DNA of 64,000 nt, taken from Liolophura sinensis. Its lineage: Eukaryota > Mollusca > Polyplacophora > Chitonida > Chitonidae. The stretch covers positions 50,765,187-50,829,186 of the forward strand of contig NC_088301.1 in the NCBI RefSeq assembly GCF_032854445.1, read 5' to 3'. This document shows, piece after piece, positions 1 through 32,100 of the stretch. Each line of letters opens with the position of its first letter. The stretch's first letter is position 1. The position numbers were made by a program, and so were the translations under genes. Below the pieces are notes generated by a model. It had not been told where the DNA came from. It did not search any database and saw only the letters and a list, made by a program, of their open reading frames with translations.

Positions 1-239
1 TTGGCAAGGCTCCGTACAGCACAATAAAATGTACATCTTGTGATACGCTTGTCTGAAGAACCTCATGGTAGTCAGCCAAAAGATCGAAGACCTAACCAAA
101 GCCTGAAAGATGTGTAGCCAGTTCTCTGGGCCGACTCTTGCCTCCATAGATTGGGGTCATGTATCATGTAATTTAGTGTGTTCATTATCCCATCACGGTG
201 CCAGTCCTAATCTAATGAATGGTGTTTTTCTCCTTGTAG

Positions 240-473
240 GGGTTTGCCCAGAGTCTGCAATTACGCACTTGTCAAGGACATTCTAGATTTGGACTAAGCA
301 GTTGTCTGTCGACAGTACATTAAGAGGGAAGGCTTTAAGATTAGGACGAAGGAGGTCTCCTTCAGATGATGTGCTGGTACACCTAATGGGCACACCTGAT
401 CCTTGACACTGATGCTCAGTGTGGTTTAAGAGGGGCTGAAAACATGGACTGAGAGTCGACATGAACAGACAAA
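240..473 (+). other. LRRN 5' UTR exon segment with splice acceptor
   Basis: A pyrimidine-rich tract followed by TAG ends at 239, a good 3' splice acceptor. The coding exon of the LRRN gene would then start at about 240 and carry roughly 234 nt of 5' UTR. The upstream 5' exon and promoter are not recognised and may lie outside the window. An out-of-frame upstream ATG occurs at 461, 13 nt before the main start. Confidence 0.5.
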
Positions 474-2585
474 ATGAGAGGCACATATTCCCACATATTG
501 TCTTCAGAGATTGCAATCTTACTGCTGATGTTCTGCAGCCTGAAGACAGCAAGTGTCAAACAGTTGCCAAGCTGGAATGTGTCTTGTCCACAAGAGTGCA
601 GCTGCAGCATTCGCATGTCACAGTACCTAAATGTCGAGAGGAAGACTGTAGACTGCAGTTGGAGCAGCTTGGATGATATTCCATTGGGAATTCCACTAAC
701 GGCACAAGTGCTAATACTAAGCAACAACAACATTACATCGCTCCTAAATCTGCCAGAGTTTCCCAGCCTTCTGGAGCTGGACTTGTCCAGTAACAATCTA
801 CAGGACATCAGTAGCAGACCAATGTTTGGACGACTTGGTTCTCTTGTGTCTCTCAACATCAGCAGTAACAACATACAAGAGATACACCATGGTGCATTCA
901 GTGGTTTGAAACACATGGAGATTTTAGACCTATCCTTCAATTCACTGCATTCCATTGAACATCAGGATGCCTTTGCTGGACTCAACCATCTGCATAAGCT
1001 TTTCCTCACTGGCAACCAACTTACATCCCTTGGCAAAGATTGGCTTAATGGAATGGTTCACCTACAGGAGCTTCATCTCAATCAAAATCAGATAAGTGAC
1101 ATCTCAGAGGGATCTGTGAATGTTCTGAAAGATCTCAAACAATTGGTCCTTTCTGACAACTTTTTAAAAGCGTTACCTGAAAATGTATTCAAAGGTCTGG
1201 GAAACCTATACCTATTGGACATATCTAAAAACAATCTCACCAAAATACCCACAAGGACGTTTCAGCAACTGTCCAACAGAACGGAACTTGTTTTGAACGG
1301 GAACCCAATTAGAAGGGTTCACACCAATGACTTTCTTAACATGGATGTGGAAAATGTTTCTCTTAGTTATATGCCAATACTTAGTCTGATAGAGAAGTCA
1401 GCTTTCCACAACATGACAAATCTTCGCATACTACATATACGCCAAAACAAGCAACTGTTTTTTATTGATCCATTTGCGTTTTCAAATGTACCACATTTGC
1501 AGTGGCTGCTTGTGGACGGAAACCACCTGTCAGCCTTGCCACAACAGGTAGAAGAAAGTTTACCACAGCTTACAGAGGTGCATGTCTATGACAACCCTCT
1601 CTCCTGCGACTGTAATATTCACTGGATACGCCAGCTTCTAGAGACACCAGAAAATAACAGTCAGTCACATATCACCTTCCCACACTCTGAGAGGATACTG
1701 TGTGATAATCTCACAGTGCCAGTCCCCCTAATGGAAGTGCCAGTCGAATCCATCCCTGCTGTGTGTTCACCTGCAACCATTCCCTTGTTCAATGATACGA
1801 ATCAGTTGGAAGTTGGAGAAACTTTACGCTTAGAGTGCCACGCGCTAGGCATTCCCACACCAAATATGCAGTGGATGCTGTCTAATGGCAAACGGTTGAA
1901 CATCACCTCTGAAAATGTGCGTGCATCCCTCATTGACGATTCTGTGTTAATTGTGCATAATATCAAGGCAGAAGATTCCGGTACATATGCATGTGAAGCT
2001 AGCAATGAGGTAGGATACGACATAAGCTCCACTGCTGTGAGAGTTCACAGCAGCAACATTCGCGTTGTCATACTTCACCAGTCAAAGACGTTCATTACAC
2101 TAACATGGAACGGAACAGATTCCACTGTGCAATCAAGCGACTATAAAATTTTGTATAACCAGGCTGGTTCATCAAGTGGTCAAAAGGAAATTCATCTCCA
2201 CCCATTTCTAAGGAAGTATACTATCACCAACTTGACACCAGATACTTCGTACGAGTTATGTGTCGTTTATGTACACAACTCTGTCTACCATAAAGTACAC
2301 TGTTTGAACATTTCAACTCTTCATGAAGCATATGTGCTCCAGGGCATCACCAGAATTAGTAAGCAAAAGATCATCATGGGTGTCATCATTGTATTTAGCT
2401 TAGGAGTCTTAGCATGCGTTGCTGGTCTGATTGTAAAAAAATGGCGACGCAAAGGCTATGAAAAAACAGACAATGGCGAAATAGCAGAAACGATGTCTCA
2501 AATCCCACTGGAAAATCTGTATCAACCTCCAAGCACTCCATTGTGCACTTCTCGTACATCTCTTCTGCCATCATCTCAAGCTTAA
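474..2585 (+). CDS. LRRN: LRRN-type neuronal leucine-rich repeat transmembrane receptor
   Basis: Complete intronless reading frame of 703 codons. It has a hydrophobic signal peptide (about residues 10-27), a cysteine-rich LRRNT cap (about 33-60), roughly a dozen LRR units with LxxLxLxxN spacing (about 60-375), an LRRCT cap with the C-D-C-N motif (about 377-432), one C2-type Ig domain with the D-S-G-T-Y-A-C signature (about 435-523), one fibronectin type III-like domain (about 524-612), a single membrane helix (about 633-654) and a short cytoplasmic tail of about 48 residues. This LRR-Ig-FN3-TM order, the length and the intronless coding exon are those of vertebrate LRRN1-3 (about 710 residues); AMIGO proteins lack the FN3 domain. 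The expected role is cell-surface adhesion or signalling in neurons. The ATG at 474 has AAA before it and is followed directly by the signal peptide. Vertebrate LRRN1/2/3 arose by later duplication, so a single invertebrate gene cannot be assigned to one of them. Confidence 0.9.
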   Translation: MRGTYSHILSSEIAILLLMFCSLKTASVKQLPSWNVSCPQECSCSIRMSQYLNVERKTVDCSWSSLDDIPLGIPLTAQVLILSNNNITSLLNLPEFPSLLELDLSSNNLQDISSRPMFGRLGSLVSLNISSNNIQEIHHGAFSGLKHMEILDLSFNSLHSIEHQDAFAGLNHLHKLFLTGNQLTSLGKDWLNGMVHLQELHLNQNQISDISEGSVNVLKDLKQLVLSDNFLKALPENVFKGLGNLYLLDISKNNLTKIPTRTFQQLSNRTELVLNGNPIRRVHTNDFLNMDVENVSLSYMPILSLIEKSAFHNMTNLRILHIRQNKQLFFIDPFAFSNVPHLQWLLVDGNHLSALPQQVEESLPQLTEVHVYDNPLSCDCNIHWIRQLLETPENNSQSHITFPHSERILCDNLTVPVPLMEVPVESIPAVCSPATIPLFNDTNQLEVGETLRLECHALGIPTPNMQWMLSNGKRLNITSENVRASLIDDSVLIVHNIKAEDSGTYACEASNEVGYDISSTAVRVHSSNIRVVILHQSKTFITLTWNGTDSTVQSSDYKILYNQAGSSSGQKEIHLHPFLRKYTITNLTPDTSYELCVVYVHNSVYHKVHCLNISTLHEAYVLQGITRISKQKIIMGVIIVFSLGVLACVAGLIVKKWRRKGYEKTDNGEIAETMSQIPLENLYQPPSTPLCTSRTSLLPSSQA

Positions 2586-5500
2586 CATTATATGAACGGG
2601 TGACCACTTTCACGATGTTGGTCCAGATATCACTAACGTTTTCCAAATGCATTGCCTTGAAAACTACATTTCCATGAAAACCTAATACCCTGACGACTTC
2701 AAAATGTACTTGTATAGATGATCTGTTTACAAAAAAATATACACTCTAATAAGGGCACGCATTTTGACCAAGTCAATCTCATACACACTCTTAATTAGGC
2801 CAATGGCACTTGATTCCTTTTTTCCCCCCATCAGAATATTTTGAAAAATTGGTGAGGGCAGCAGAAATATTATCACTTTTCATCATCCGTATTTTGGCTA
2901 CATTTTATGATAATCTGACCTTCTGTTAAAATTTCATCAAGGACATTCAAAGGAATCAAGTATGATTTGCCATCGGCCATGTCATATCACTATATAGGTT
3001 CCAGTAACAGTCGTGATGAACCATGCCTTCAGAATGCTTTCCAAATCAAATTGTGGGCTTCCAAACCATCAAATCTAATCCAATGCATAATACAGTGTTT
3101 GGGTCTATTCCTGCAAACCACCTATCGAAAGACTTAAATTTTGTAAAATGTGTCTTTGTGCATATTGTTTAGAATAATAATCTTGTGGAAAGTTGTTTTC
3201 ACAAGTTTTATGAAACTGTGGAAAGTTAGTTTTAAACATCATTCTATTTATCATCTTAGTTCCCAAATACTCATGTTTTCCTTACCATTTCAGATCTGTA
3301 TCACCAAAAACCCACACTGTATTTGAAAATCTACTGCTGTTTGTACAACTGCCACTGTATGTTGCCTTGATAGTAATGCTACACACCTGGTGCTTACAAA
3401 CATTAAAAAAAAAAAAAAGAAACTCCGAGTCGGTTTGAAAAAATTTCTTCCACTATAAAAACCTTGCAAAAGCAATGCATTTCCGGCAAATAACATATTT
3501 TCATTTTTTCATAAATATTTCCTTATTTCCTTGGTAAATTTGAATGCAAATACTTGTCAGAAACATTTTTTTTTTCAGGATAGGGATGCAATAGTGGTTA
3601 TTTCTAGTCATCTCAACAACAGTATATAGTCTTTCAAACAATGACCAATGGGGTGCATTTCCCCACCTCACATGTCTAAAGTAATTCATGACTAAACTGT
3701 GGAATCTTTTGTTCATTCTTGCCTTTGCGATGATGTTTTGTAGGCAAACCACATAGTAACATGTTACTCTTTCACTGCAAGAGGACAATGCTATATTCAG
3801 CTTGGACCTGAGTCACCATTATGTGCGACAAGGTACCCCGTTGGTGTTCTACAAAGTTCATAAATTATATGCATGTATTCATACCAGCCCACCACTTACT
3901 AATGCACATCGTCTGCGTCATGAAGTGTTACATAATAAAAGATTTATAATTGATGATCTCTTGACTGGAGCATGCCACTAGCTTGCCCGTGGATTACCTG
4001 TGGAAAACCCATGGGAATGGTAATGAGCTGGTTGTAAAACATCATTATCTGTTCTAGCTCAAATCCACAGTTAAACCAAAGCAGTGAATGTATAATTCAA
4101 CAGATGAAGGCCAATGAATTGGTGCTGGATGCTAAATGTCAGCAAACTACTTGCTAGGGAACAAGTTAATGGTGTTTCCGCTGTTTGCTAGCGTTTATAT
4201 ATATAAAACAAAATGGGCTATTATGTAATTCATTTGAATGCACTGTTTATGTCATACGGCACAAAGAACAACTGTACAGCTGAAATGTTTGTTCATTCAT
4301 GTACATGTAATATGTAAATTTTGTACATTTTTACTGTCAAAGGAATTTGATGTTGCATTATCTAGTCACTTAGTGTAATAATCTTAATGTTATCTCTATG
4401 CAAAGTCATGCAAGCTGTTATAATTATGATTTGTGATGACCAAATTTTTGATTTCTTCATGGAATTTTGCTTTCTGAGGCATTTAAAGTTCAATTCCTTC
4501 TATATTCAAACATAATCAAATTTGTGAAGTCAAGACGTGACGTGAATTCATGTGTAATCAATATGTACATGTACATTGTATGGACATCTAGTATGTCATC
4601 ATTTGTAATCCTGAATATGAAAGAAATTAAAAATTAGTAAAATGAATATGTGCATACAAAAGTTTTCCAATTAACAATTAATTACAGTATCCATGTTATT
4701 TTTATTCAGGCTTTTACAATGGCTAGATAATTTTCTTGATCTGCTCAACTAACCACTCAGACTCACAGCAATCACTGATACTTCATACAGGTGTGAATTG
4801 TACAGCTGGGAAAAGTGAATTCATGTGTCAATGATAAATTTCTATTTATACATTTACACTATTTCTATTTATACAAGTAGGCTACCATTCTTTTATATTA
4901 TAAGCGGTTTTTAACCAAACACTGCTGAATGTCCATTTTTAATAACAGTGCAATACATGGACCACATAATTCCAAGCTTCCTTAAACAATATAAAGGAAC
5001 TCTTTCCACTCATCACAGTCACAATGGAAACGTTGAACGAGGCATTGTTTAATAAACTAGACACAGTCCTAGATGCTTTTTATGAACATTCATAGTGTCA
5101 ATGTTCTTAATTTTCCAGAGGCTACATGACTGATGACCATTGCCAAGGTTCTCACTGACATGAAAATGTGTCACAAGATATACAGTGTACCTCATGCACA
5201 TACATAACCAGTAAGCAGATTTAGAACATTTATAAGATTTTTGCCTACATACTTGCAAACCAAAGTTTTTTCTTGCCTAGGATATTCTGTAATAAACAAT
5301 TTACTGCACAGTCCACAGAAACTAAAGCAATTCCTCATGAACAGTCTCTGTAAAGTACTGCTTCAATAGTGTGAGAATCCATTGTATCAATCTGGATCGT
5401 GTCAGCAGTACCACTGCTATACACTACCACCTTTAACATTCATTGCTGTTTCCTGAAATTCTCAAACCTGGATCTATCTATCATTACCATTTCCCATTTG

Positions 5501-5890
5501 GCAACATACCACAAATGATCAAAATATACCCTATGAAATACGGAAGTGTTAGCTCAATTAAATTTTTTAAACTATTTAAACTTTCACACAATTTAACGCT
5601 AATCCTTGTCAATCTAGTCTGTTATGATTATCCCTATGCTATTTTTGGAATACTGCTGATTATAATTTTTTTTCTTCTTGAACTAAGATGATTGGAGCTT
5701 GTATGTACAGATATTGTCCTTACCACCATAAAGTATGTTTTCAATCAATGCTTGCAAAAATGTTAAATATTTTTTACTGTATCATTTTATGACATACTAG
5801 GAAGTCCTTGGTGGCAAAGTCTTTAAGGTTAAAGCACATGTATATCCTCCAAGGTGGTGTCATAAATAAAGCTAACTGTGCTGCCATTTT
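2586..5890 (+). other. Probable LRRN 3' UTR with several candidate poly(A) signals
   Basis: This AT-rich stretch after the LRRN stop has no coding signal. Canonical AATAAA hexamers on the + strand include those near 3934 and 5865. The true cleavage site cannot be chosen from sequence alone, so the right boundary is a guess at the longest likely UTR. Confidence 0.35.
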
Positions 5891-6139
5891 TTACCCACAT
5901 TTTACTTCTGCATGAGGTTATAGACTTTGCTGCCGCATAAACTGTAAATTATTCATTGCATGTTGAAGTGTCATGTGAAAACTGTACATTTGAGAGAACA
6001 AAGTCATGAAAAAAAATAATAAATGTGATACTAAACTTGCAGTTTTGTTGCTGATGTATCTTTCACCTTTTTAGTCATGCAACACAACTACATTACGAAA
6101 TCCATGTGCCTTATTTAACATGGTACCTGGCTGGTGGTG

Positions 6140-6235
6140 GTTTACTTTAGGCACTGGTTTCCTTCAACCATAAACCTTTTGTTATATAAGTGAAACATCT
6201 TGAGCAAGGTACTAAACACCAACCAATTAAATAAA
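6140..6235 (+). mobile_element. Degenerate SINE fragment, family A
   Basis: Diverged body ending in AAACACCAACCAATTAAATAAA, matching the reverse orientation of the family A tail. No head is visible. Confidence 0.55.
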
Positions 6236-6346
6236 AGAATACATAATGTGCTGGTGCTTCCCAGTGACTGATCACTGTTTGAATGCTAGTATTAAGCTAC
6301 TAGCAGAGATAGAGTGTTAAGGAATTTTACATATTGCCATTCATAG

Positions 6347-6890
6347 AAGGGCTACTCCAATTCCAAGAAAAAGTACATGTGCACGTAAATGTAGTGGAAT
6401 CATAAAAACACTACCAAAGCAAACCCTATGGAACAGTGCTAACAAAATGATTCAAAAGTAATCTTCTTCAGTTTCCGTAATTTTTTTGCTGATGTGACTT
6501 GATAACTGACACATTTTCACATAAGGTGTGACCATTTTCCAACTATCACACTGTTGTGACTACAGTCTGCAGACTGTAGTCTTTTATACTGAAAACATAA
6601 ACTTGAATCAGGCATACGTGATTTAGTGTATTACAGCTATCAGGCTGGAACATTAGAAAGTTTGTCATCATTTATGGAGATGGGTGACACCTTGTGTTCT
6701 TGCTTGTCCCCACATCAGGCAAAATAAGAAACAACAGAAAGTATTTGTTTCTGTATGGTACTCCCAAACTTATGCCAGTGGTTTTAATACACCACAATTT
6801 TCTTCCAATGCAGGAAAACAACGGTCTCTAGCCTTATCAATTAACCCTGCTTAATGAACTCTTAGGTTTTTACACTGGTGTAGCCCTTAA
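6347..6890. mobile_element. Non-autonomous DNA element candidate (MITE), copy 1
   Basis: Matches 39168-39677 along most of its length, with shared blocks such as GCTGATGTGACTTGATAA, AACAACAGAAAGTATTTGTT and the ACACTGGTGTAGCCCTTAA end. Short terminal inverted repeats GGGCTACTCC and GGTGTAGCCC. It contains the 24-nt palindrome at 6558. It has no coding capacity. Confidence 0.6.
6558..6581. repeat. 24-nt perfect palindrome
   Basis: GACTACAGTC-TGCA-GACTGTAGTC reads identically on both strands with no spacer. It lies inside MITE copy 1 and has no equivalent in copy 2. Confidence 0.9.
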
Positions 6891-9800
6891 AAACTAAAGC
6901 CAATTGTACATTGTTTTAAGCGCTTATACAACCCATAAGTTTAGATCAGTGCATGTTTACAACCATTAAAATGTTTCATTCAGTATCCTGCAGGCAGAAG
7001 AGCTTAAGCCTGGAACAACAAACACAGCCCACAGGAGACCATTGCAGTATGCCCATATTTATTTACTTGGCTCAAAGCTGTCAGAGTGGGTGTTTTTCAA
7101 CAGCACCAAATGCCACAATAACAAACATGAATGCTAAATACACAAATAAATAAAATAAATCAATAAACTTCTGTCATGGCTACTTTAAGGGCCGAGTGGT
7201 GTCTGGTTATAAACATTGGAGATTTACATTTTTGGGCTGAATTACTACCACGGACAAGATTTAACCCTCAGCCAGACTCATTCAAGTATAATAATAACCT
7301 GAAAGGGAAAAGCATCTTAATATTGCCTCAAACCCAATCAGAAACTAGTGGCTTGTAAATTTGTTCTCAAGATATTGTTCACATTTGAACGAATTCAGAT
7401 GCATTCTTGAATAAATCTAGATGGTGCCAATAGTGGATAACAAAGCAAAATACACGGCTGCTTCCATCTGAGAAGCCCAGGATTCTTCATGCAGTAACAT
7501 GTATGGAAATTCCTTCTACATGTATTCAGGGACTATTTGTGCCTGCCTCCATTTGCATCATCAGCCTTGTCCAAGCTATTGGCACACATCCAGCATTTGC
7601 TAATCTATGGGTTCTCCAGAGAAATCAACTGTCCCAAATGGTTATACCTCATGGTCTAACAACAATGGCAGTCTGAATCTAGGCAATATGACAATCACTG
7701 CCATAAAGTGAATCCCTTGGAGCAGATGTCCACAGGTCTGCCAGAATGAACCTTGGGACTGAATCATTAAGCAGTACCCCCAATAATAGGATTCCAAAGC
7801 CTCAACCCTGTTTTGTAAAGTGAGCACAGCTTGTCGCAGAAATTCTAGTCATGATATTATTAATGCACTTTTATACAAGTAAATGACTGACTTGAGTGTC
7901 ATTTGTCATGTTTACCCATATGCATGAGTCTGTAATTCAAGAAGAAAAGAAGATGACCTTTGCACATTTATACACCCACTGACAACTGATGTCTGCTCAA
8001 TCCAGCTGTAAGGGAAATTAGAACAGGAATGGTTTGCATACCAACTATTAGTAGTCAGATACAGTTGGTATAGCTTCATTGCAATCCTTACACACAACCG
8101 TATTCCACCAGTTTCTCCGAGACTCATTAATTTCTTGGTGATATATCCATGCCAGAAGGTTAACTGACAACCAATTAGGGTAGATACCAAGTGGGCTGTG
8201 AACTTGGGGCCTTTGCTGACCGTGGCATTTTACAGTAATCAGTCATCTGACAGCCAAAATTGACTCAAGGCTTGGGCAAATAAAACTCATTGTTGACCAT
8301 TACCATGAGCTCATGGAGAAATGGAACACGAACATGGATTCTCCATCCTAACCTGACCCAAAGATCGATTCACATTCCCACAAAACCTGCTCTAACACTC
8401 TTCAAAACACTGTTCAACCAAGCACGCACGCACACAAATATGACCAAGTAACCCTTGTAGGTACCAGTCACACTTTATGGATAAGTGATACACTTCATGT
8501 CAGAAGGAAACGAATGGGACATCTCACTACACGCAAAGCTGATTGATTAGATCATTGTTCCTTGGATCAGATCACTGTTCCTTGGATGATCAAATCTGAT
8601 TAATGCTAAAGTGCTTATGACTTTATATTATCGCTGATATTATCTATATACAATATTTTGAAAATAATACCTGCCTCTTTATTTGATTTGTGTATTGTGG
8701 GGTAATAAAGAATATCTCACTCATACTTTGATTGTAAGACCTATAGGTGGAGGAAACCGTTACCTGCAAAAAACCTCCTGACATAAAGCTGTACATTAAA
8801 GTGACCTTCTTATCGCAGACAAAACACTCTTTAAGTATAAGGTCAGAGGCTTAAATCAAGCTATTCTGGCTATATCTTTATGTGCAGAGGTTTGTTGAGC
8901 GATTGGCAGTTGTCCCCTAGGTTCCGCTCAGCATTCTTCCACCCATAAACCTGAAACTGAACCTCAGTTACGTGGTTTGAAAGACATCACTTTCCCAGAA
9001 GAGCGACCTTTGAAAGTACCAGTCACACAAATAATGCTTTTACAACATGACATTTCCATTAATTCTCTACCACCCAGTTTTGACAACACAATATTTTTTC
9101 ACAGGTTTCAACAATATGAGTGACAAGTCAACATACAAAAGATGACAAAGCGTAACGAATCCAAATGGAAAGAGACAATCCTTTACTGAAAAGACAGCCA
9201 TATCATGTTGAAGGCTTTATCTTAATGTTAAGTCATCTTACAAATAAAGGAAACTCTTCACATAACTTAAAACTATTTAGCGCCAAACTTTCTTGTCACA
9301 ATATATTGTTGCATCCAAAAATAAAAAGGCAGTCTCGTCAAAAATTCATGCCAGTGTCGGAATGGAAATTGAAGTTGTTCATTCCTCCAAGAGCTGGACA
9401 TTTTTCTTCCGCTGTGAGCATTCCTGTTTTATTTGACATGAGAGCTCCCATCGACTTTCATTATCCGAATACAAGGAAGTCCTGCGCCGTTTGAAACCAA
9501 TTTCTATCATTAGATGCCTGGTGCCCTTCAGCCATTCCACGGATGTCCTGCGCTACAATCAATATATCGGAAACATTTCAATTCACCCTTTCATCATCAC
9601 TGATGAGCCCTTGTGCAGACATGGGCGGCCTGAAGCCGTTGGCATTAGACCATGGCGGTAAGCCCCAAGTTTAAGGGCTGGGCAAGAAGGAAGTGTTCAA
9701 GGACAGAGTGAAGAATATCTGCTTCCTTTCACTGGCTGAGGTCATTAAAGCCTCACTGCCTGAAGGGTATTAGCTTTAGACTTGTAAACAGAAGCACCCA

Positions 9801-11007
9801 CCACTGTCTAGCATTCAGGGGTCTAAGGTGTTAAAGCTCGTGAAGAGTGCCCCAAGATATAAAGGTTGTCAAATCACATTACCATCAACTTTGTTTTCCC
9901 TAGAAAAGATTCAGGCATTTGCTTAAAAGACATCACCAGTGCTTTCCAGGCATCCCTAAAGGGAAAAACCCTCTACTCAAGTGCGTCTTTACACTTTCCG
10001 TCAGAAAGAAATGAACACCTCTAATATTCCAACTGATTTGACTCGTAAAATAAAACAATGAAGCCCCAAAGTGAAAAGAAAAAACTTCTAATGAGTAAGA
10101 TCATGTGTTTTGGCAAAGTTCAAGTATCGTTGTAGGAAGAAACATGTTGTGAATCTGGAATCTAGATGTGTTTGCTCAAAAAGTTTAATTACACATTACT
10201 GATATATATTACTCCTACCATACATCAAGGCATTTAGAAATCAGAAAATAATAATTGAAACAACAAGCAAAATATGAAAGATCCATAACAAGACAAAGGT
10301 ACCAGTAAATAAGACCATATTTTCATAAAATTCTTATAATTTCCTAGATGAATCTAATAATGAACATTTATTATTACATAAGCTGATAAAGCAATGCAGG
10401 AAAATGAACAGCCAAAGGTCAGCATAAAAAACCAAGAATTTAAATATCACAAGCAAAATTTTGAAAGAATAAACCTGAACACAACTTAACAAATTATACA
10501 TTATACTGCAAGCATTTTTCTTTTGTTTTTTTTTTTTTTTTGGCGAAAACAAAAAATGACATTCTTATTCCAGATAATATGAAAGACAACAACAGAATGT
10601 CAGTATCCCAAAACAGAAAACCTCCTATCCCTCACATTAGAAAACCATGTCTTGGCAAAATCATTTTATGAAGGTAAGTCAGTTTCTTAAAAAAACGTTT
10701 GCATGAAGTAAGACCAGGGTTTAGCAATGACACATACAAGTGCGGTATTTTGTTCTGAGGTTGTTGACAGAGATTTCCATGCATACACCTAAGCTTAGGA
10801 GACTATGGGAATCAATACTAAGAATAACAGCAACGCACCTCTACCTGCAAGAAAGCATATACGACAAACATTTAAGGCTAAAAGATTCAGCAAAGCACTA
10901 GCAAAGAGAACAATGCTGTGAGAGCTATATTCGGATTAACACTAATCCAACTTCTGGAGAGCAAGACAGTGACACATACTGAAAACATGGCACTCAAAGA
11001 AAATACT

Positions 11008-11118
11008 GGTAGCTTGCCTGATAGAACAGTTTGCAAAACTGCGTAATGTTCAAGTCATGTAATACATTCAAATATTGACATCTAAACCAAAAAAAAATTA
11101 AAAAGTAGAATGATTGAC
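11008..11118. repeat. Dispersed repeat, copy 1 of a pair
   Basis: About 110 bp closely matching 23479-23580, e.g. AATGTTCAAGTCATGTAATA followed by CAAATATTGAC. Not coding; class unknown. Confidence 0.8.
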
Positions 11119-13242
11119 ACTGTCATACAAGGATATTATCCTCTAATTATATAGTGCTCAATTCATGCCATTAAATCAACAAGAAAGACCAAACTTATTA
11201 TACTGTCATAACTATCAGTGTTTATTGTATGCGTAAGGATTGCAGAGCAGAGCAGTGTGTTATGAAGTTGCAAATCACTGGTGGTAAAAGACACTTGGGG
11301 CAGTTAGAGAACAATTTTACCACAGATGCCTCTAATATACAAATCTTGAGCTGCGATTGGCAATGCACCCATGTACTATAGGAGGCAAATGCAACCTTGT
11401 GAATAGCTGAGAAAAATGTTAAACTATGAGGTAAAAGACTTCCTGGGTCTTTGATAAAACTATGGGTGGCCACTACAACCCTATGATTGGCCAAAAACTT
11501 CAACCAAACTTGACATCAACACCACCACTGACAGCATCTGATTCCCCTCTCACAATAGCCATCCTTACTTCATAAAGCGAGTTAATACATGGCAAGAGTA
11601 ATTACTATAATTCTTCAACTTTTTGCATGTTTGTACGGTTTTGTTTCAAGCATATTCTGAAGACATTATTCTGTGATAAAATTATACTTTTTGTGAAGCC
11701 CTGAAATTGGACAATCCAAGCAATATTGTAACCCAAAACAAATAACAAAAATGTGCATAAATTCCAATGAAAGTTGCTCTTTGATATGTGTAAAGGTTGA
11801 GGAATTAGCGGACGCCTGCTGTGATGTTTTTCCAACATGCAGATCTAATCCTTAAAAGCCCTCACAAATACATGCATATATCACAAACCAGATGAAATAA
11901 TCTCAGATGACAATTCAAAGTGACGGAAAGTTACGAGAACGGCAACTGTGTCCATAAGTTATTGCTGATTTGAATAATATTTCCTGTGCTCTAGAATAAA
12001 CCAATCAATATGGCAGAAACAACTGACTTATATACAGATATACAGAAAACGGATGAAATATCATTACCCAAGTCTTTACTCCAACATTATTTATATCATG
12101 GCCATATATTTCAATGGGTTCTTGCAAATTTATCACTTGTTACAATAATTCAAAGAACTAAAATTATTTATTTACTTGAATTACACATTACACCATTCAT
12201 ATAATAAACAAAATTAATTTGTTGTTACACCTCCAAATCCTCTGAAATGATGATTAAAATAACAAAAAAGAGGTAAAAGTATGAGATTCATATGAGTTAA
12301 AGTATAACAGATTTATGATACGTTATTATGTCAGCAAATGTAATGTTGGACTGTTGCGTAACCAATAGGAAAATACTGTATCAAATGTTCTTGATGATTA
12401 ACCAGTCTACCCTGTGAGTTACACATCAATGACATATGGGAAGACGATCCTTTCCTTTTAGCTAAAAATAAGCCTGTTAGTATCGAGTTAAATGAGCATT
12501 TGTTATTTGCAGTATGCAGAACAAAACAACATAAACATTGTTTTCTTGATGTGATCTTCTCATGTATATTCCCTCACATAGTGTCACATACATGTATGTT
12601 ACAAGTTATGTTATATCTGATAATCATATATCCTGACAATACCGTCCTCGCCCAAAAGCAAATTGAGTGTGTGATTTCACGTACTCTGGGCATACTATCT
12701 CTCCTCTGGGCGTTCTTTTCACCTGATCGTCACTTGCGTCTGGCGCTCTGCTGGTCAGCCTGATCACAATGACACTATTACTGCTGATGCAATACACATT
12801 CGCCAGTGACTGTAAGCTGTTTTTACCTTTCGTGTTGTGGCGCTATAGTGCCGATGATGTCAACAAATTCAGTCGGGGAAAACTTGTGAAAGTATAATAC
12901 GTTTACGTAGGATCATGGAATATGTTGTCTGTTTATTAATATTGCAAAAACTGACCTACAAACCTGAAGAGGGTGAAAATGTATTCAGAAGTGAACGATT
13001 CACTATGAGAGAAAGTCACTATCAGGTCAGAACCTTTCTGATCTCTCTGCCTTAACCTTTTGTTTTGGTCGCTTGAAAAAGTTGAGATTTATGCTGAACC
13101 AAAACACTGATTTTATCCATTTGCTTTAATTTCATAACAATGCTGTGTTTCTTGCTGTCAGCCCCAAACAGTGAAGACAAATATCAAAATACGCCTTAAC
13201 TACTGAGATCACAGCACTTGTGATATACCTACATGTATATGC

Positions 13243-13245
<3 letters not shown>

Positions 13246-13275
<30 letters not shown>
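13246..13275. repeat. (TA)n microsatellite
   Basis: Uninterrupted alternating TA of about 28 nt, in the IMMP2L intron. Confidence 0.9.
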
Positions 13276-13279
<4 letters not shown>

Positions 13280-16170
13280 TGGTAAAATGTAATTTTGCAG
13301 TTGGACAAAAATCTCGAGCTTTATTTTTTTGTTAAAAATACACGTAGACAACTGTTTTATGTCCCAACTACAAAAGAGGAAAGTCTATAGTGGAGTCTGA
13401 GAGAATTCAAATGGATTAAGGCTCTGCGTGAACGTTTATTTTTTGGTGGATAAACAGAGGCATCATGCTGCTAATGTGGGATATTTCTTCACTTCCCTGT
13501 GCATAGAAGCAGAAAATAGAGGGCTTAAATGCATTTGTATACAAAAAACAGTTCTACTAAGTCATTAACTCTGGATAAGAGACAATCCGTACACAAATAA
13601 AATGTTTGAACTGATTAGCACGTTATTGGAATTCTTGTGAACAAATGCCAAATGTCGCTACACAAGAAATTTGGCCAAAAGTCTGCAGTATTCCCTCTTT
13701 GAAGTTGTTTATCAAAATCAACTTAATGTTTTCACTGTTTTATGTTTTTATTTTTAAAAGGACAGGAAGCCATGTGAGATACTATGCTGATACCTTCGAA
13801 GGGGACAAGTGTTAGTAATGTAAACTTCAGATCCGAGTTTCATATAAATTTTATGAAACTGAAATGTGCAAAATAAACCCAAGTTTCATTGTCTGCGTTT
13901 GTCTTTTCATTCAAGTTGTACCCATGTGCGCGCAAACTACACTTCATGGTGATGTTACACATCTTAACATGCACTCAGTGCGGCGGTGAATTTGGTGAAG
14001 TTAATTTTCAAATCCTACTGCTGTGCAAGTCTCAGTATGGAACGAAAGTGTGCCCCATGCGTGAGATGTTATTGTTTATGGGACCCAAATCCTTTAAATA
14101 AAACAAAATACATACAGCGCAACAGGGAGGATGTCTACTAACATGTACAAACATGCTACCTGCATTTTTCACGTATAAAGGGTCTACATTTCATCAGTGC
14201 TGAGGTATGAGTGAAAATATTCTTGTGTACGACATAAAAAATTGATCAAACAAGTAAAAATACAATTCGCTATCCAACCATTCCCAGGTTATATTGCCAC
14301 TGCTTACAGATTCACCTTGTGCATTTTCTCTGGTATACACCAATAACAACCCACTTACTGGCATAAATTCTTCCAGTTCATCTGTCTTGTAATATTCGAC
14401 ACTACACTTACTCGACATTCGTATACTTTAACGTACTCTTGGAGAATCAACCATAACTATAAATATACTCAAATCAAATGTAGGTAATTTTTTTAAACAT
14501 TTACATCTGCTAAATGTGCATCTGTGAATGTGAGATGACTTGAACGTTTTTTTAGAAGCAAGTGTCATCATGGAGTGAATGAGTTTTGTTTAAGAGATTA
14601 TGGATCAACTGAGAATATTCTATCAGATTTCAACACCAACTGTAAATCCATCCCACACGTGGCATAGGCTTACTCCACAGAGTGGGGGCGGTTAATCCAT
14701 TAGCCTACATAAGCGGTTTCAGAGGTCAAAAGTATTATGATTCAACAGTGATAATTTAACAGTGATACCAGTCCAGGGATTATTTACTGAAATTGTAATA
14801 GGATTAATAATCAATTGACAATATTCTGCCAAGTTTTATCACCAATTATGAATTCATCACATCTCACAGATGACCTTTTCTTACTCCACAGGCTGGATGG
14901 TCGGGATTCATAAAATCAGAAAAATGAAATGGAATTTAAGCCTAGATAATTTCCGGGCCTACAGTACGGGAAAGTAATTGTTGACCTATACAAGCCTGGT
15001 GCATTGATATAACAACCAGTTGTTAAGATTTCATCACTTTATGGTTTATTTCACTAAGAATGTCATTAGAAAAAATAGCGTTTGATAAAAGAAAGAGTAT
15101 GAGTGGGCCTATACCATCGCATGCGCCACCTCTCATGCGTGAATGCAGGTCTATATAACTGGTGAACCTGAAACAACAAAGAAAAAATTTTAAAACGTAT
15201 AATTTTTGAGTTCTTGTATGCTAATAAATATTATCCAGCAAAAATTCCACACTTAAATTCTGTATGAAGTCACATCGTTGATTTAAACTGACCAGATAAT
15301 TCTAACAAAACGATCAAATTCTATACGAGGCTTCATCATCACTTTAGGCTGAACAAACAATTCTCGTTTAGCACTTTATATTCAAACGAATGTAGGCCTA
15401 CAGCTGGCCATCATGTTGATTACTTTACCTAATCATGTGTTTAGCTTCTGATCACTGAGCAAACAAGGTCAAACACCTTGCCGGGAAAAGTAAGGCAAGG
15501 CCGTCTGCATTTCACCACGCTGGCTGAACTATGTTCACTGAAAGCTCGGACGACCTGTAGCCTTGCGCATCAGAGGATGGCCACCCCAGCTGTAGACGTC
15601 ACACTGGTTTCACCCTCTCTTCAATTACTCTCCATGTTCTCTAGGCGCCTTCACATACTAAATTTGCTTTTGGGCGGTATTGTATGTCTATATCAAAGCT
15701 CAAAGGTATTTAATTTTAAAAATATTCTTATACTCTGGATGTACTTAAAAGAAAAGAAAAACATAAAGCTGTCCAAGCAAACAATTTATGAGAGTTACCT
15801 CCCCTTTCTACCAAAAGTAATATCAGAAGATATATGCAGTTCAGTGGAGTCATTGTTCATCTGTTACCTATTTATAAATATTATATCCTTTGAATAAGAA
15901 AATTAAACAATGAGAAAAACATGCTAAACTTATAAAATGTAGTTTCTTTCTCCACCATGCAATTTTGATCACAGAGTAAATGGCAATGACAGCTGTAGGA
16001 ATAAATAAAACAATTTTACAGTTTAAAACAGCCAATAACAATGTTCATAGTTACACAAAACAACATGTATGACAATTTGCTGTGATGTTCTATTTAATTC
16101 TTTTTATGTCAACCTGAAAAAGTCATCACTGCAACCAACAACAGCAACATAGTCAAAGAAAGCAACTTAC

Positions 16171-17311
16171 ACCAGAGATACTATGTCTCCCCGCTGAAAC
16201 TCATAATTTCTAGCCGCCCATTTGTTGAGAAGAACATAGTCCATTGACCTCTGACCCTGAGGATTGAACACAGGCTGAAACAGTGAGAAAAATATCTTCA
16301 TTTCATTTATTTATTAATTTATTCGACTGCTGCTTAATGCCATTTTCAAGTATTTTTCACTTCACTTGGTGGAATTAAAATTATTAGTGGAGGAAACCCA
16401 CCTAGCACAAACCACCAAAATTGGGCAAATTACTGATGATCTTTCCCACATGTAGAGATATGCACACCATACTAGGGATCTTCAAAAAATGTTAGGCTAA
16501 GTGAACCTTCACACTAGTACTGTCGACCCCTTGTGATCATCAAGGCCTCCACAAGCAGAGAGTGAGGGAATATACAAATTCACTGTCCAAGGCCTCGTTT
16601 GAATCGACAATTTAATTTGTCCTAGTGAATGAAAGTCAAGCCCAGAGCAAAATATGAATGGTACACAATGCTTTTCAAATAAAATGCCAATATAAGACAC
16701 AGTTTTGTCTAAAATAACAACTCTGGTAATATATATATTCATATATTTGTAAACTATTTATTTATTTAACTCTAGTCCAGCTCATGCTAGCTTCCTCTCC
16801 AGCCATATGGGAGAACGCCTGCCAGCAACCTGCAGATTGCCGTGGGTTTCTCCCGGGCTCTGCTCGGTTTACTCCTACCATGATGCTGGCTGCCGTCATG
16901 TAAGTGAAATATTCTTGAGTAAGGCGTAAAACATCAAACAAATAAATACTTGATTTCACTGGTATTTAACATAACACTCAAGAATTTTCTACTTCTTGCT
17001 GAAGCTGCAAGTGCTGGAATGAAACCTGCAATGTTATTTGTCAAGGGCCAGCATGTCAGCAATTCGAGCCAGACAGGACCCTGTTTGTGTAAAGTAAAGA
17101 GCATGCTGTCATTTAAATGTTATTTTCCATTATCTTTATATCTCCATGGTTAGTGTTAATATAAAATAGAATATAAAAATATTTTGCATACCTGCATGGA
17201 GGCACCTTCCACTTTTGCAACATAGCCAACAACATCAAAGAAGGTGACTGTGGCAGGTAGGGCAAAGGTAAGTGCTCCCATCGCAACTTTTAACAGATAT
17301 GTGACCCCCAT
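16171..17311 (-). CDS. IMMP2L: Mitochondrial inner membrane protease subunit 2, N-terminal exons (partial)
   Basis: Two - strand exons, 17311-17192 and 16274-16171, join in phase 0 and encode the first 74 residues. Exon one ends in V-E-G-A-S-M-Q, the S26-family signal-peptidase motif whose serine (residue 38 here) is the nucleophile. Exon two reads on with D-Y-V-L-L-N-K-W and R-G-D-I-V-S-L-V, the conserved block before the catalytic lysine. The hydrophobic stretch at residues 5-27 is the membrane anchor. Splice sites are GTATGC and GTAAGT donors with a TTTCAG acceptor. The ATG at 17311 is supported by an in-frame TAG four codons upstream. The family processes intermembrane-space presequences together with IMMP1L. 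The catalytic-lysine exon and the D-x-N-x-S-F-G-P block were sought between 1 and 16170 and not found, so the rest of the gene must lie left of the window. The open phase at the 3' end is 2. Confidence 0.88.
16305..16410 (-). mobile_element. Degenerate SINE fragment, family A
   Basis: ATTTATT tail followed by a diverged body, including GTGGAGGAAACCCACC; no tRNA head. It sits 30 bp upstream of the second IMMP2L exon. Confidence 0.6.
16757..16950 (+). mobile_element. SINE, family A, truncated
   Basis: Reverse-orientation copy, tail AAATAAATA at 16941-16948. It keeps the body and the part next to the B box but lacks the A-box head. It lies in the IMMP2L intron between the two visible exons. Confidence 0.82.
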
Positions 17312-20159
17312 CAGGACAAGCTAATATCTTCATCCATAATGCACACTTCCCTCGCTAAAAACCACAAAGAAAAGAAAAACAGAGTGTCTGTACTTTATTT
17401 GATTGGTGTTTTATTATGCAATCAAGAATGTGCCACTTCCATAACATCAGAAGACAGGATAGTAGCAAAAAAACAAGAAGTACTACTGGGAAAACGACTG
17501 AACCTAACTTGCAACCTTAAGGGGTACTTTTTCCTGTGAAAGGGCAACTCAGCTGACATCCGGTAATGTTTGTCAGAACAAGAGACTGCACAGCTTTCAC
17601 CTTAAGCTGGTTCAGTCATTTTCAGACAGCTGATTGAACGACACACCTAAGCAGCATTAAAACCATATAAAACTGGTTTTGTTGATTTAAAGTGCTTGAA
17701 TCTGATGAGGCTTACTCATAACATTGGTCAGTTTCTTGGGTTTAGATTGCTGTATTTGATTAATGTATATTAATGGTTATGAAAAAGTTCCATTACTGTC
17801 TTTGAATCCCAATTAGAAAGCCTTAGTACCTAGCAATCACTGAACGGATCCAAATAGCAAATGATTTCATTGAAGCATCCAGACAATTTTCACTACAGGA
17901 ATTTCAGGGAAGTTTAAAACATTGAAAAAGATAAATTTCAAATTTATTCACATTATGTTAGCTAGATCAGTATTTCTGCATTTGTATTATTTTGTTTACT
18001 GTACCAGTACCTATATTTATGGTACCAGTATATGAACTTCAGACGAACTTGGTCAATAGACGTAGAATACATTCAACCAGCTGACAGCCTGGGAGGTCTT
18101 GTCTCCATTAGCATGTCGATTCACAAAACAGGAGCTTATTTATACATTATATCAACATGGACTAGTTCATCAATAATTTGTGTTCACAACAGTTTGTGCT
18201 CAAGTGTGGATAGCATTGCATTGATATTTTAATATTTAATGGTCACAAAATCCACTTTTATTTCTTCCTCATTCACACTCCAGATATCTAGGCAAATTCA
18301 CTCTCTTGCATATGTAAAGAGTGCCAACGAAGTCATACATGAGCTTGACCCCACTCCAAGATATGCAAAGAGAACATCAGATTACAGGTGTGAGATGGAG
18401 CGAAAGTTAAAATGGACTTTGCTGGACTGTTCAACAGTTTTATTATCTTGAGGGCAATCATCAATGATACATGCTAATACTACATGCACCTAGGAACAAG
18501 CTCCTAGTTGGTACATTAAATCAGCGAAATAAACAAACCCTAAAGGTTCCCAGCTTGGTTCCCAACATTTTCCAATTCTATTGAGAAAATCTGTCTAACA
18601 TTTTATATACTATAAATTCCTTTAATTATATGATTTGAAAAAAATATGTTTAAATGTTTCTAGTGTAAATCTTGTGTAAGTGAACTCTATAAACCTCCTC
18701 TTAATATCAGAGGTATAACGATAACAAAACTATAACTGGTAATATTATTAAAAATTCATACTATTTTATACATAGGTAACCATTTTTACATACAGGCATC
18801 ATTTATAGTGTTAAACCTTGAGGTCTATTTTTCCCCAGGTAACTATCAGAAATTGTTGAAAAAAGACCTCAACGTTTTAATTTAATTGAACTACATAGTT
18901 CCTAAACAACAAATCATTCACATATTTTTTTTAATAAAAGCAGCCCTTTTCAACTCATAATAACCCAAGAAATTTTGACCTCATTCGCACAGATCGTTCT
19001 ACGGGTAGTCTTTAACCATATCCTCAACTACATGAAATAATTGGATATACCGGTACACCATTGGATATGTTGTTGTTGACATTGAATAAACCGGTACTGA
19101 AAAACCAAAGTGTCTAGATTTTCGCCAAGAAGTAATTTACCTATCCATTACATCCGCTTATGAACTTTGTTTTCTGCACTTTCGCAAATCATTTCACTGA
19201 TATTGCTGCATATCATTCAGCTTGAGAGGTATTGTCTTCCTCCAAGCGAACTGCTTTGCCCTTAACATGTGCACGGACTAATATTACCTCCGATCTTTAG
19301 AGAGCTCCATATATCAGACTAGAGTACCTTCTGTATAAGAGTACACTAGTAAGACTAGAATACATTTATACTGTATAAAGATACCCTAATAAGAAAACTG
19401 GTGCAAATAATCCATGCACACAAATAAATCTATATAACGCAGTAAATGGTCAAATGGTTTACTGTTTTTAACTTTCTTGTTTTTTTTTTGTCAAAGGATC
19501 GATTTCTCCAACTATTTCTGTAGAGCTCTTTCTAATAGTAAAGTAGGTCTACCGGTAGAATGCTTGGCATATATGTTAAAAGTAAGTCACTGGTGTCTCA
19601 GTGTAGAGGTAAGGTTGGTGGGTGCTTTCATATCAGCAGATATGAAATTCACATCTCACAAATTATATACCATACATACTGAACACACCATTTGGCCTAC
19701 ATAAATGTAAATTAATCTATAGTGATGTCATTGCCCATGTTGCAAACTCTTTGCACAGTAACATGAAAAAACTGCTCTGGAAATTTCTTGCCATAATAGT
19801 ATGCATACTGCTCAATTTACTCACCAGTAGTGGTATTTGTCTCATCATTTAGAGATGTGTCAACAAGGTCGTCAGATATGGAAATGGTAGATAACTCAAG
19901 AATTCAGAACTCAGTGGTGCGAATTTCAGTATGTCTGATCTTACACAAGGTTCCCAAGGTCATGACCTAAAACCTTTTACCATACTGATATACATTTCAT
20001 CTGTTGTGTTTGTAGGATTTTGTGAATTAACTTTGACTCAAGGGACAGAATATGATTCCATTAAGAAAATACAGGCCTAATATCTATATCGACTTCTGGA
20101 TTGTTGTTGAATGCAAATCACTCTTCATAAGATAAAAGAGAACAAAGATGTTTCTTTGA
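17312..20159. other. Intergenic region between ELAPOR 3' end and IMMP2L first coding exon
   Basis: The IMMP2L promoter and any non-coding first exon should lie here. The sequence is AT-rich and I could not place a core promoter or a 5' UTR exon with confidence. No coding exon is recognisable on either strand. Confidence 0.4.
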
Positions 20160-29100: not shown

Positions 29101-32100
29101 TATACATATAAAAAAATTTCAAATGACAATTTAAATATTAACTGAATGACAAAATCACCTACATCTGCATAATGTATTACCTGCATCTAATTGTATAAAT
29201 GGTCTACAGATTACCACAAATATATCATTTGTGTGGCATTTGACAGAAGGTTAACACGTTAGAAAACACTTAGTGCTTCTTATACTGGCCAAATTTCTCA
29301 AAAACCAAATTAGTAGTTCTTTTTAGACCATAAAATGCATAAAACCATATTTTGATTTTTTCTTAACCATTTGTGTGGATAATAGAAAAACAAAATACAG
29401 GTAAGAAAGTGTGAGATGCACATGCAACAGCAGCTTGATCATTCCATCACAGAAGTAATAGGTATAGAAGGTATGTGCAAATGATAATTGCAAATTGCAA
29501 ATGAAAACACTGTGAAACCCCATGCTAATCAGAATTGTCAATTAACTTTAAGTCTTCGAATCTCCTCCACTCCTGACGCACTGAGCTTATACCAGTAAAT
29601 AACCATAAATGGATAAAACCAACATCCCAATATTAAGTACAAAATAAACGTGCACGACATCGTCAACATCTAAAAGCATCTTCAAAGTTAACCCGATCAC
29701 CAATAAAACCGTGTATACCGGGAACCCCATTCAAGAAAAGCAAAAAAAAAAAATTTTCTCTTCAATAAGCCAGATACTAATAATTCAACCTACAGATAAT
29801 CCAAGACCATTTTCCTGTTCACAATGCAAAAGTTACTAATTAGTATAAACAATCAATGGTTGTAAAGTTATATCACCATCAAACTATGATAGATACATGC
29901 ATAGAATAGTTAAAACTCAGTAATACAGAACATAAATACAAACACACACAGATCTAGATATATAACATGTTGTTATGTTTTTTTGCTTATTTCAAACAAA
30001 ATCATGCTGGATGTATCAAAATCTTTTCATGCTAACTGTGCTGTCAAACACACTAAAGACTGAAACCTGAAACAAAATAAACAACTCACCGCCTCCTCAA
30101 AGGTAACATTGTTGACACAAGTTGCCTGTGGAAAGGCATCATGACCAGCACAGAGACTGATGTTGAACCCATGAACATATTTTGTGCCACTAGAGGTGAA
30201 GAGCCTTGTACCATCTATGTAATGGCTGTATCTACAACACAGCATCAAGTCCATGTAATGACTTGCTGTTAACACAACACATGCCACAAGATTATGGAGG
30301 CAAAACATATTGTAATTTGCAAGTCTGGAATACATGTTACTCCAGTGCCCCCAAGCATGGCTTACATTATGATCCCAGTTAAATAAAAACCTAAAACTTG
30401 GTCAATCCCTTTTTATCTAATTTTATTTTAATGATTATATATTTTTTAATATTAGTATACCTGACAATAACTTTAAGGGTATACTGTTAACACACCTAAA
30501 ACTTCATACCTAAAAATTCTACATCTATTACATTTGGAATTCAATGTGTTTGAAGACAAAAGCTATGACTCACTTTCCTAGTTCTGTGAAATCAAACTCC
30601 CGTCCAGCAGCATTTGTGAATTTGCAGTCTGAGGCACACTTATTCCCATTGAATGGCTGGAGTCCTGATCCACATGTCTGGCAAGATTTCTTTCCCCAGA
30701 AGCTGTCACCAAGGACAACGGTTCCTTGCGGGCAGGGCGTGCACTTTGTGGTGTTAGGGTCAACAAAGTGGCCATCGGGACAGGGGATACATCTGCAGTC
30801 ACAAAGAGTTGCTTCTATGGATAGCTGTTTTATACTTTACCCTGGGTCATGTACATGACGGCATGAAATTTATGCAAGGCAAAATTAGACCAACTCTTGA
30901 TCATGTATCAGTCTTAGTAAGGCGATAAAATATTCCTAAACTAGTGCACTCTGCCATAAACTGTCAAGCTACAGCCCTTCTATCAAGAGCTGGAACAGAA
31001 CTGGAAATATCACTGGTGAACAGCAATGGCCCTATAGATCACACAGTCAACAGGGACTCCACAGACATTATTTGGGGCAACAATGTGTATTAGCTGAAAA
31101 CCATCTAACGAATATGTGTCAATGCAGCACATAGTGCATATTATCATATGACACTTTGATTGTTGTGAAGAATGTAAGCATGCAAGATGTCTGACCCGTT
31201 GTCTTGGACTCCTCTTGGGCAAGACTGACAGGATCTAGCTCCGCCCTGATTGTCCCCGATGTTTGTCACCTCAATGGAATATATCTTAGCAAAGTTGTTT
31301 CTCCCGAGGTCCTTATGGCTCTGCCCAGGACGGAAGGCAAAGGAAAAAGCGTAGTCGTTTAACTCAGTCACCCTGTGCCTGAAAAATACATTAGTAAACT
31401 TTAGCTTAGGTCTGCTGCGCATTTCATTACTTATTAATGCTATCATCAATGCATAGCATTATTTGGGTACATGGAAACCACCAAGATAATGTTATCTTCA
31501 TGTAACCAAGATTATTGTACAAAAACATACAACAGACAGTATCGGAAGTTACCACAAAGAGTTTTGAAATTACTGCACATGATATCTGAACCCTGCGGCC
31601 AATTTTACAGCATAGAGCAAGACATGTACAAATGTAAAAAATAACACACGAAACAAATAGTATTAAGTAAAAGTAAGACTGATCTGAAAAACTGGACACT
31701 TAGGAATCAACAAAGGTCCTACAATCTAACATGTATTGTCATTTGTGAAGTGAAGTATACATACACATGACACTGCTACAGATCTATGACAAAAATCAAG
31801 TTACATGTACTCTACATTACTTGTATTCTTGTCTCTTTTGGGTTCCCTCCCAGCTCTGTAGCAAAACGGCATCAGCTGACTCCTAAACAGAAAGACAAAC
31901 AATAGCCATCTTCATAAATTCATGCATTTCTCACATACAAATTATCAGAAAAAAACTTTGTTGTACTTCGAGCTCCTGTCTTTCGTATGTGTATCATTCT
32001 GCAAAAAAACATCACTTTTCAAGAAAGCCTACCTGAACTTTATTCAGATCATATGTAATATAAAACACAGCTCACTATCATAAACAATCTTTAACTATCA

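What the first reader, a model, noticed from the sequence alone, without database searches (positions are those of the whole stretch)
1..17311. LRRN receptor gene nested antisense inside an IMMP2L intron, as LRRN3 is in humans
Seen: the first two IMMP2L coding exons on - at 17311-16171, no later IMMP2L exon in the remaining 16 kb, and a complete LRRN gene on + at 474-2585 downstream of them. Known: human LRRN3 lies in an intron of IMMP2L on the opposite strand. The intron that opens here, after the R-G-D-I-V-S-L-V exon, appears to be the equivalent one. Inference: the nesting predates the protostome-deuterostome split and may be kept because LRRN regulatory elements sit in IMMP2L introns. The 13 kb of apparently empty intron to the right of LRRN is where such elements could be.
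Basis: partly seen in the sequence, partly recalled or inferred. Interest (0 to 1): 0.8.

Follow-up and report, generated by a model that had tools for sequence, protein, structure and literature searches.

The report
LRRN gene nested inside IMMP2L intron
In this invertebrate genome a neuronal receptor gene sits backwards inside a very large intron of an unrelated mitochondrial protease gene, just as in humans, so the arrangement is probably over half a billion years old.

Summary
The window is C7:50765187-50829186 of a 609-Mb assembly. IMMP2L has five coding exons on the minus strand: two in the window (17311-17192, 16274-16171) and three 34.7-48.3 kb left of it. They splice with GT-AG borders into one 163-aa S26 peptidase. 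The LRRN gene (474-2585, plus) lies wholly inside the 50,829-bp intron between coding exons 2 and 3. It is the best match in this genome to human LRRN1 as I recall it; the reverse search was not possible. Human LRRN3 lies in IMMP2L intron 3 (PMC2913944, PMC4255718); a probable 3' splice site before the ATG exon suggests the same count here. A Lox5-type Hox gene marks the genome as lophotrochozoan. Shared descent of the nesting is the best reading. Why it lasted is open: a nested gene can hardly leave without cutting its host. The intron is poor in repeats (mean 1.7% against 7.2% in 15 random tiles), which fits a regulatory landscape, but two neighbouring tiles are equally poor. No DOCK gene, the human neighbour's family, was found beside it.

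The parts
474..2585 (+). LRRN gene, single coding exon, 703 aa: LRR array, I-set Ig, FN3 by Pfam; N-terminal and C-terminal LRR caps weak; hydrophobic helix and ~50-aa tail read by eye
   Evidence: ORF; Pfam LRR_8 1.2e-43, I-set 6.9e-14, fn3 5.8e-7; best genome match to recalled human LRRN1, 252 bits
225..239 (+). 3' splice-site-like stretch (TTTTTCTCCTTGTAG), 234 bp before the LRRN ATG; would imply a spliced 5' UTR, inferred only
   Evidence: pattern scan
17192..17311 (-). IMMP2L coding exon 1 (MGVTYL...VEGASMQ), carries the motif serine; GT donor follows
16171..16274 (-). IMMP2L coding exon 2 (PVFNPQ...RGDIVSLV), AG acceptor and GT donor
17355..17380 (-). pyrimidine-rich stretch ending in AG, 43 bp before the IMMP2L ATG: probable 3' splice site of a non-coding first exon, which would make the LRRN-bearing intron number 3 as in human; inferred
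   Evidence: read by eye
1..16170 (-). part of the 50,829-bp IMMP2L intron (C7:50730528-50781356) that lies in the window; it goes on 34.7 kb beyond position 1

Best explanation
This is an inherited nested gene pair: an LRRN1/2/3-type neuronal LRR-Ig-FN3 receptor gene lying antisense in the intron between the second and third coding exons of IMMP2L, the same arrangement as human LRRN3 in IMMP2L. Shown here: host complete and spliceable, LRRN frame whole and inside the intron, opposite strands, genome lophotrochozoan. Inferred: the nesting was already present in the common ancestor of protostomes and deuterostomes. It persisted because any break that parts the two genes must cut the host gene, and probably also because the 50-kb intron holds LRRN's own control elements, with IMMP2L a passive (bystander) host. 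The confidence given is for the shared descent; the regulatory part alone I put near 0.4 to 0.5.
For: Five in-frame IMMP2L exons on one strand of one 60-Mb contig around LRRN; no N in the 124 kb read except 186 bases not fetched. LRR-Ig-FN3 order and best match of recalled human LRRN1: 252 bits, second LRRN-type gene 212, next 92 (62 of 421 first-look candidates scored). Human LRRN3 in intron 3 of IMMP2L (PMC2913944, PMC4255718, PMC8835746; passages); a different-strand nested pair found in coelacanth and/or zebrafish (PMC3933685 table 1). Chance that one of 2 LRRN-type genes falls in this intron of a 609-Mb genome: about 1.7e-4, half that antisense (my arithmetic). Lox5 peptide KLTGP. Repeat coverage of the host intron 1.7% on average against 7.2% in 15 random tiles, 0 of 15 as low as its mean. 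LRRN3 listed as regulatory-block target, IMMP2L and DOCK4 as bystanders in human (PMC6906185).
Against: Only two lineages compared, one of them through papers; no amphioxus, annelid or insect locus was readable. Protein identity to LRRN1 is 28-30%, and the 13-row tree with two recalled human rows left the LRRN group unsupported. Human sequences were recalled, not fetched, and the reverse search (window gene against a human proteome) could not be run. The human splice position is recalled. The regulatory part is untested: two of five host tiles (3.0% each) lie inside the random range (minimum 2.8%), and two neighbouring non-host tiles (1.7%, 1.0%) are as poor in repeats. No DOCK-C2 match lies nearer than 9.9 Mb.
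Confidence: 0.86

Rival explanations
1. Shared descent but no regulatory cause: the pair stays together only because a gene inside a coding gene's intron cannot be parted from it by rearrangement without destroying the host. (This differs from the best explanation only in the cause of persistence.)
For: Host is complete and the only IMMP2L found. Repeat poverty is shared by some flanking tiles. No DOCK gene was found next to it. PMC3933685 says that nested structures can be inherited, duplicated or lost (passage).
Against: In frog the host is listed as absent, which reads as loss of the host with the nested gene kept (PMC3933685 table 1), so separation happens. The intron is very large and poor in repeats, which inertia alone does not predict.
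Confidence: 0.45
2. Independent insertion: LRR receptor genes with a single coding exon were retroposed into the large IMMP2L intron separately in vertebrates and here.
For: Single coding exon here and in the Lrrn family (PMC2225406); other LRR genes are nested elsewhere (LRRTM in alpha-catenin, PMC3933685; LRRN1 in SUMF1 intron 8, PMC2913944). Here 6 of 7 SUMF-type (PF03781) matches lie on C9 and one weaker on C7 at 3.98 Mb, far from the LRRN-type genes at C7:50.77 and C1:89.71 Mb, so the LRRN1-SUMF1 nesting looks younger.
Against: Same host, same interval between coding exons, same antisense orientation, same gene family: about 1e-4 by chance.
Confidence: 0.07
3. The gene is another LRR-Ig-FN3 receptor (LINGO, LRFN, LRIT, kekkon type) and not an LRRN.
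For: Many LRR and LRR-Ig proteins match it: among the 60 shown of 93 solved sequences at E<=1e-20 are IGFALS, LGR4 and LINGO1, and none is named LRRN1-3. Tree support is weak, and recalled LRRN3 matches only to residue 611, short of the tail. The strict YXX-phi and acidic dileucine motifs of vertebrate Lrrn1 are not kept.
Against: Best match to recalled LRRN1 among 62 scored of 421 candidates, running from near the N terminus (residue 16) into the tail block IPLxxLYxP; LRR-Ig-FN3 order.
Confidence: 0.07

Closest known systems
Human LRRN3 nested in IMMP2L intron 3 (7q31.1)
   Same: Same host gene, antisense, LRRN family, whole gene in one intron, intron number probably equal
   Different: Lophotrochozoan; the gene stands for the line before the vertebrate LRRN duplications (inferred); host intron 50.8 kb; no DOCK gene found next door
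LRRTM1-3 nested in alpha-catenin genes (PMC3933685)
   Same: Neuronal LRR receptor antisense in a large host intron
   Different: LRRTM genes reported only in vertebrates; the pair here would be far older
Genomic regulatory blocks with target and bystander genes (PMC6906185)
   Same: LRRN3 is listed as target and IMMP2L as bystander in human
   Different: No conserved elements tested here; the other bystander, DOCK4, not found beside it
LRRN1 nested in SUMF1 intron 8 (PMC2913944)
   Same: LRRN paralog nested in a host
   Different: No sign of that nesting here: six of seven SUMF-type matches on C9, one at C7:3.98 Mb; LRRN-type genes at C7:50.77 and C1:89.71 Mb

Membership tests
LRRN (LRRN1/2/3) receptor family | LRR array, one Ig, one FN3, TM, short tail (about 12 LRR with LRRNT and LRRCT caps in vertebrates) | tested here: met
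   LRR_8 six stretches, I-set and fn3 over cut-off. LRRNT (21.5 of 25.8 bits) and LRRCT_2 (15.5 of 23.8) below cut-off; repeats not counted; TM and tail by eye
LRRN (LRRN1/2/3) receptor family | Coding region in a single exon | tested here: met
   one 706-codon open frame, 465-2585; no RNA evidence
LRRN (LRRN1/2/3) receptor family | Best match of a vertebrate LRRN in this genome | tested here: met
   252 bits, second 212, third 92; query recalled from memory; 62 of 421 candidates scored
LRRN (LRRN1/2/3) receptor family | Reverse best match in a vertebrate proteome | not testable with these tools
   no animal proteome held; solved structures list no LRRN1-3 among the 60 shown
LRRN (LRRN1/2/3) receptor family | Monophyly with vertebrate LRRN1-3 in a tree | tested here: inconclusive
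   nearest rows by path are LRRN1 and LRRN3, but forks open (65/90)
LRRN (LRRN1/2/3) receptor family | Tail motifs reported for Lrrn1 (YXX-phi and dileucine, PMC2225406); not counted by me as defining | tested here: inconclusive
   block IPLENLYQPP faces IPLNELYPPL; YQPP is not YXX-phi; LL present without acidic residue
IMMP2L | S26 peptidase with serine (GASMQ) and lysine (IIKR) motifs in one spliceable frame | tested here: met
   (PF10502 77.2 bits, cut-off 22.9); TIGR02227 81.2 bits
Nested gene pair as in human | Whole gene inside one host intron, opposite strand, host complete | tested here: met
   (coding parts; UTRs not known)
Nested gene pair as in human | Same host intron as human LRRN3 | tested here: inconclusive
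   papers say intron 3; between coding exons 2 and 3 here; the match needs the non-coding human exon 1 (recalled) and the one inferred here at 17355
Genomic regulatory block | Array of conserved non-coding elements | not testable with these tools
   no related animal genome held (no relatives)
Genomic regulatory block | Poor in transposons and repeats | tested here: inconclusive
   host tiles mean 1.7%, random tiles mean 7.2% (n=15), but two neighbouring tiles equally low; tiles not matched for intron or gene content
Genomic regulatory block | Bystanders of the human block kept (IMMP2L, DOCK4) | tested here: inconclusive
   IMMP2L kept; DOCK-C2 matches only at C7:10.94, C7:40.79, C6:70.37 and C12:14.98 Mb, none within 9.9 Mb; DOCK4 type not resolved; exon-wise search may miss

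The most novel reading that the evidence does not exclude
The IMMP2L intron is a bilaterian-age regulatory landscape of the ancestral LRRN gene: enhancers in it have held a mitochondrial protease gene around a neuronal receptor gene since before the protostome-deuterostome split, and human disease variants in IMMP2L introns act on LRRN3 through remnants of that landscape.
Probability: 0.4. Interest if true: 0.72.

Novelty: new member of a known kind. Interest (0 to 1): 0.52.

Why it matters
IMMP2L deletions and variants are argued over in autism, Tourette syndrome and schizophrenia, partly because LRRN3 lies inside the gene. If the nesting is as old as Bilateria, LRRN control within IMMP2L introns can be tested in invertebrate embryos. 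It also gives a datable case for asking whether nesting alone, or regulation, keeps unrelated genes together.

Tried and rejected
Considered and rejected: further IMMP2L exons inside 2586-16170 (none listed); processed or duplicate IMMP2L (complete exon set; the C6 gene is IMMP1L-like); chance nesting (about 1e-4).

Led nowhere or weak: the Pfam model PF10502 missed the window exons. The 13-row LRR tree was unresolved. DOCK typing by one short exon each against solved structures gave DOCK1 and DOCK5 as best hits for both C7:40.79 and C6:70.37; no DOCK3 or DOCK4 chain was listed, so DOCK4 cannot be told. NCBIfam gave only LRR cross-matches far below cut-off for LRRN. A search with the L1CAM-type tail model found one copy on the same contig (C7:45.38 Mb) and two on C3: a hint of old linkage, not a test.

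Paper searches that could have shown the pair outside vertebrates. Seen were listings with the starts of abstracts: 5 of 5, 20 of 27, 20 of 409, 20 of 113, 20 of 29, 15 of 27 and 10 of 857 papers; none of those lines names it. sought the human exon borders: 10 of 782, 2 of 2 and 10 of 56 listed, without the wanted detail. Passages only (never whole texts) were read of PMC6906185, PMC4255718, PMC2913944, PMC3933685, PMC2225406, PMC10735318, PMC8851819, PMC9023564, PMC2941017, PMC4746269 and PMC8835746. PMC10735318, PMC8851819 and PMC9023564 do not name LRRN or IMMP2L in the main text. Irimia et al. 2012 (ancient microsynteny), whose tables could list this pair, is not held. Supplements were not readable.

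Full report
What is there. The window is bases 50,765,187-50,829,186 of contig C7 (60.4 Mb) in a 609-Mb assembly. On the plus strand at 474-2585 one open frame encodes 703 residues. Pfam finds leucine-rich repeats (LRR_8 1.2e-43), an I-set immunoglobulin domain (6.9e-14) and an FN3 domain (5.8e-7); the LRRNT and LRRCT_2 matches are below their cut-offs. By eye a hydrophobic helix and a short basic tail follow. On the minus strand 17311-17192 and 16274-16171 are the first two coding exons of IMMP2L.

The rest of the host gene. The Pfam model PF10502 found only an S26 gene on C6. A search with an IMMP2L query (window exon peptides joined to human segments recalled from memory) listed 7 matches at E<=10: both window exons; three more on C7 minus at 50730458-50730526 (E 0.126), 50717320-50717430 (9.1e-9) and 50716949-50717017 (0.637); and two of the C6 gene. 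Two of these are weak alone. Reading the DNA and splicing it gives exons of 120, 104, 66, 103 and 99 bases, introns of 917, 50,829, 13,033 and 308 bases with GT-AG borders, and a 163-residue protein. It scores 77.2 bits against PF10502 (cut-off 22.9) and has 89 of 157 residues identical, without gaps, to human IMMP2L as recalled. The serine motif GASMQ and the lysine motif IIKR are present. The LRRN frame sits 13,585 bases from coding exon 2 and 35,132 bases from coding exon 3. The 124 kb examined hold no N apart from 186 bases that I did not hold. Among the frames of 100 or more residues in that intron, listed and looked at by eye only, the longest besides LRRN and its antisense shadow has 166 residues and does not look like a gene to me.

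Is it LRRN. A recalled human LRRN1 finds this gene first (252 bits, residues 16-683), then a second gene of similar plan at C1:89705724-89707646 (212 bits), then a drop to 92 bits; 62 of 421 first-look candidates were scored. The C1 gene has a 730-codon frame with LRR and Ig but no FN3 at E<=0.001 in Pfam. Only this direction was run; no human proteome is held. The recalled LRRN1 tail fits print: PMC2225406 gives a 57-residue C-terminal fragment 660-716 of chick Lrrn1 and its primers (passage), which match the ends when I translate them by eye. In the alignment the block IPLENLY of the window gene faces IPLNELY of LRRN1; the C1 gene lacks it. The strict endocytic motif YXX-phi is not kept. A tree of 13 rows (two recalled human rows, two LRRN-type genes, 9 further LRR genes of this genome) gives LRRN1 and LRRN3 as nearest to the window gene but with open forks. 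Orthology therefore rests on the one-way best match, the architecture and the shared host.

Same place as in human. LRRN3 is nested in intron 3 of IMMP2L (passages in PMC2913944, PMC4255718, PMC8835746). PMC3933685 lists the pair among human different-strand nested genes also found in coelacanth and/or zebrafish, with the host absent in frog (table 1). Human exon 1 is non-coding (recalled), so intron 3 lies between coding exons 2 and 3. Here a pyrimidine-rich AG at window 17355, 43 bases before the ATG, suggests the same non-coding first exon (inferred). The genome is lophotrochozoan: its best Antp-class match reads ENNISKLTGPDR after the homeodomain, the Lox5 peptide (motif recalled; the query carried a similar tail, but these letters are the locus's own). 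Mollusc was not tested.

How likely by chance. With 2 LRRN-type genes and a 50.8-kb target in 609 Mb, random placement gives 1.7e-4, half of that antisense. Shared descent is therefore preferred over repeated insertion. As a contrast, human LRRN1 lies in SUMF1 intron 8 (PMC2913944), while here 6 of 7 PF03781 matches are on C9 and one weaker match is at C7:3.98 Mb, 47 Mb away; SUMF1 and SUMF2 were not told apart. That nesting seems younger.

Why it lasted. Two explanations remain. One is lock-in: separation must cut IMMP2L. The other is regulation: human LRRN3 is listed as the target of a regulatory block with IMMP2L and DOCK4 as bystanders (PMC6906185 table). I tested one expectation of the second, poverty in dispersed repeats. 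Against a library of 15 random 10-kb tiles, five host-intron tiles (LRRN masked) were covered 1.0, 1.6, 3.0, 0.0 and 3.0% (mean 1.7%); the 15 random tiles 2.8-12.2% (mean 7.2%), none as low as the host mean (rank test p 2.6e-4; 0 of 20,000 draws of five random tiles as low), although random tiles had 14 and host tiles 15 library tiles to match. Against this: the 3' flank (1.7%) and one of four upstream tiles (1.0%; the others 3.5, 8.5, 7.1%) are as low, the next intron has 3.9%, host tiles are neighbours and not independent, and random tiles were not matched for content. A local self-comparison gave 2% for both halves of the host intron, 30% for the next intron, 19% for the first, 5% for the 3' flank and 9% upstream. 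Against a wide conserved block: DOCK-C2 exons occur at C7:10.94, C7:40.79, C6:70.37 and C12:14.98 Mb, none nearer than 9.9 Mb; the next recognised gene to the right in the window is ELAPOR-like.

Verdict. I saw no paper naming this pair outside vertebrates in the listings, which were partial, and the main microsynteny catalogue is not held.

Noticed in passing
window 30570-36766, minus strand: Pieces of an ELAPOR1-like gene: PF23091 over cut-off (53.1 of 33.2 bits) at 33129-33488; below cut-off at 30573-30836 and 36536-36766.
   Followed up: partly
window 56145-61652, minus strand: Several coiled-coil exon-like frames of an unidentified gene; five frames scanned, no Pfam family over cut-off.
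   Followed up: partly
L007 (C1:89704001-89709500), frame 1574-3763 minus: Second LRRN-type gene, 730-codon single frame, LRR and Ig domains, tail without the IPLxxLY block.
   Followed up: partly
window 17337-17311, minus strand: A short upstream frame MDEDISLS ends in a TGA that overlaps the IMMP2L ATG, a possible translational control.
   Followed up: no
L015 (C7:45384284-45384442): L1CAM/neuroglian-type FIGQY tail 5.4 Mb from LRRN on the same contig; in human NRCAM and LRRN3 are both on 7q31 (recalled).
   Followed up: no
L008 (C6:25499000-25502500): IMMP1L-like exons on minus, followed by at least three copies of a GVTVRLYQNSMYIKLKQ-like short repeat.
   Followed up: no
L029 and L037: Two random tiles are 9-10% covered although each matches only one other tile of the library; perhaps a shared long element.
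   Followed up: no
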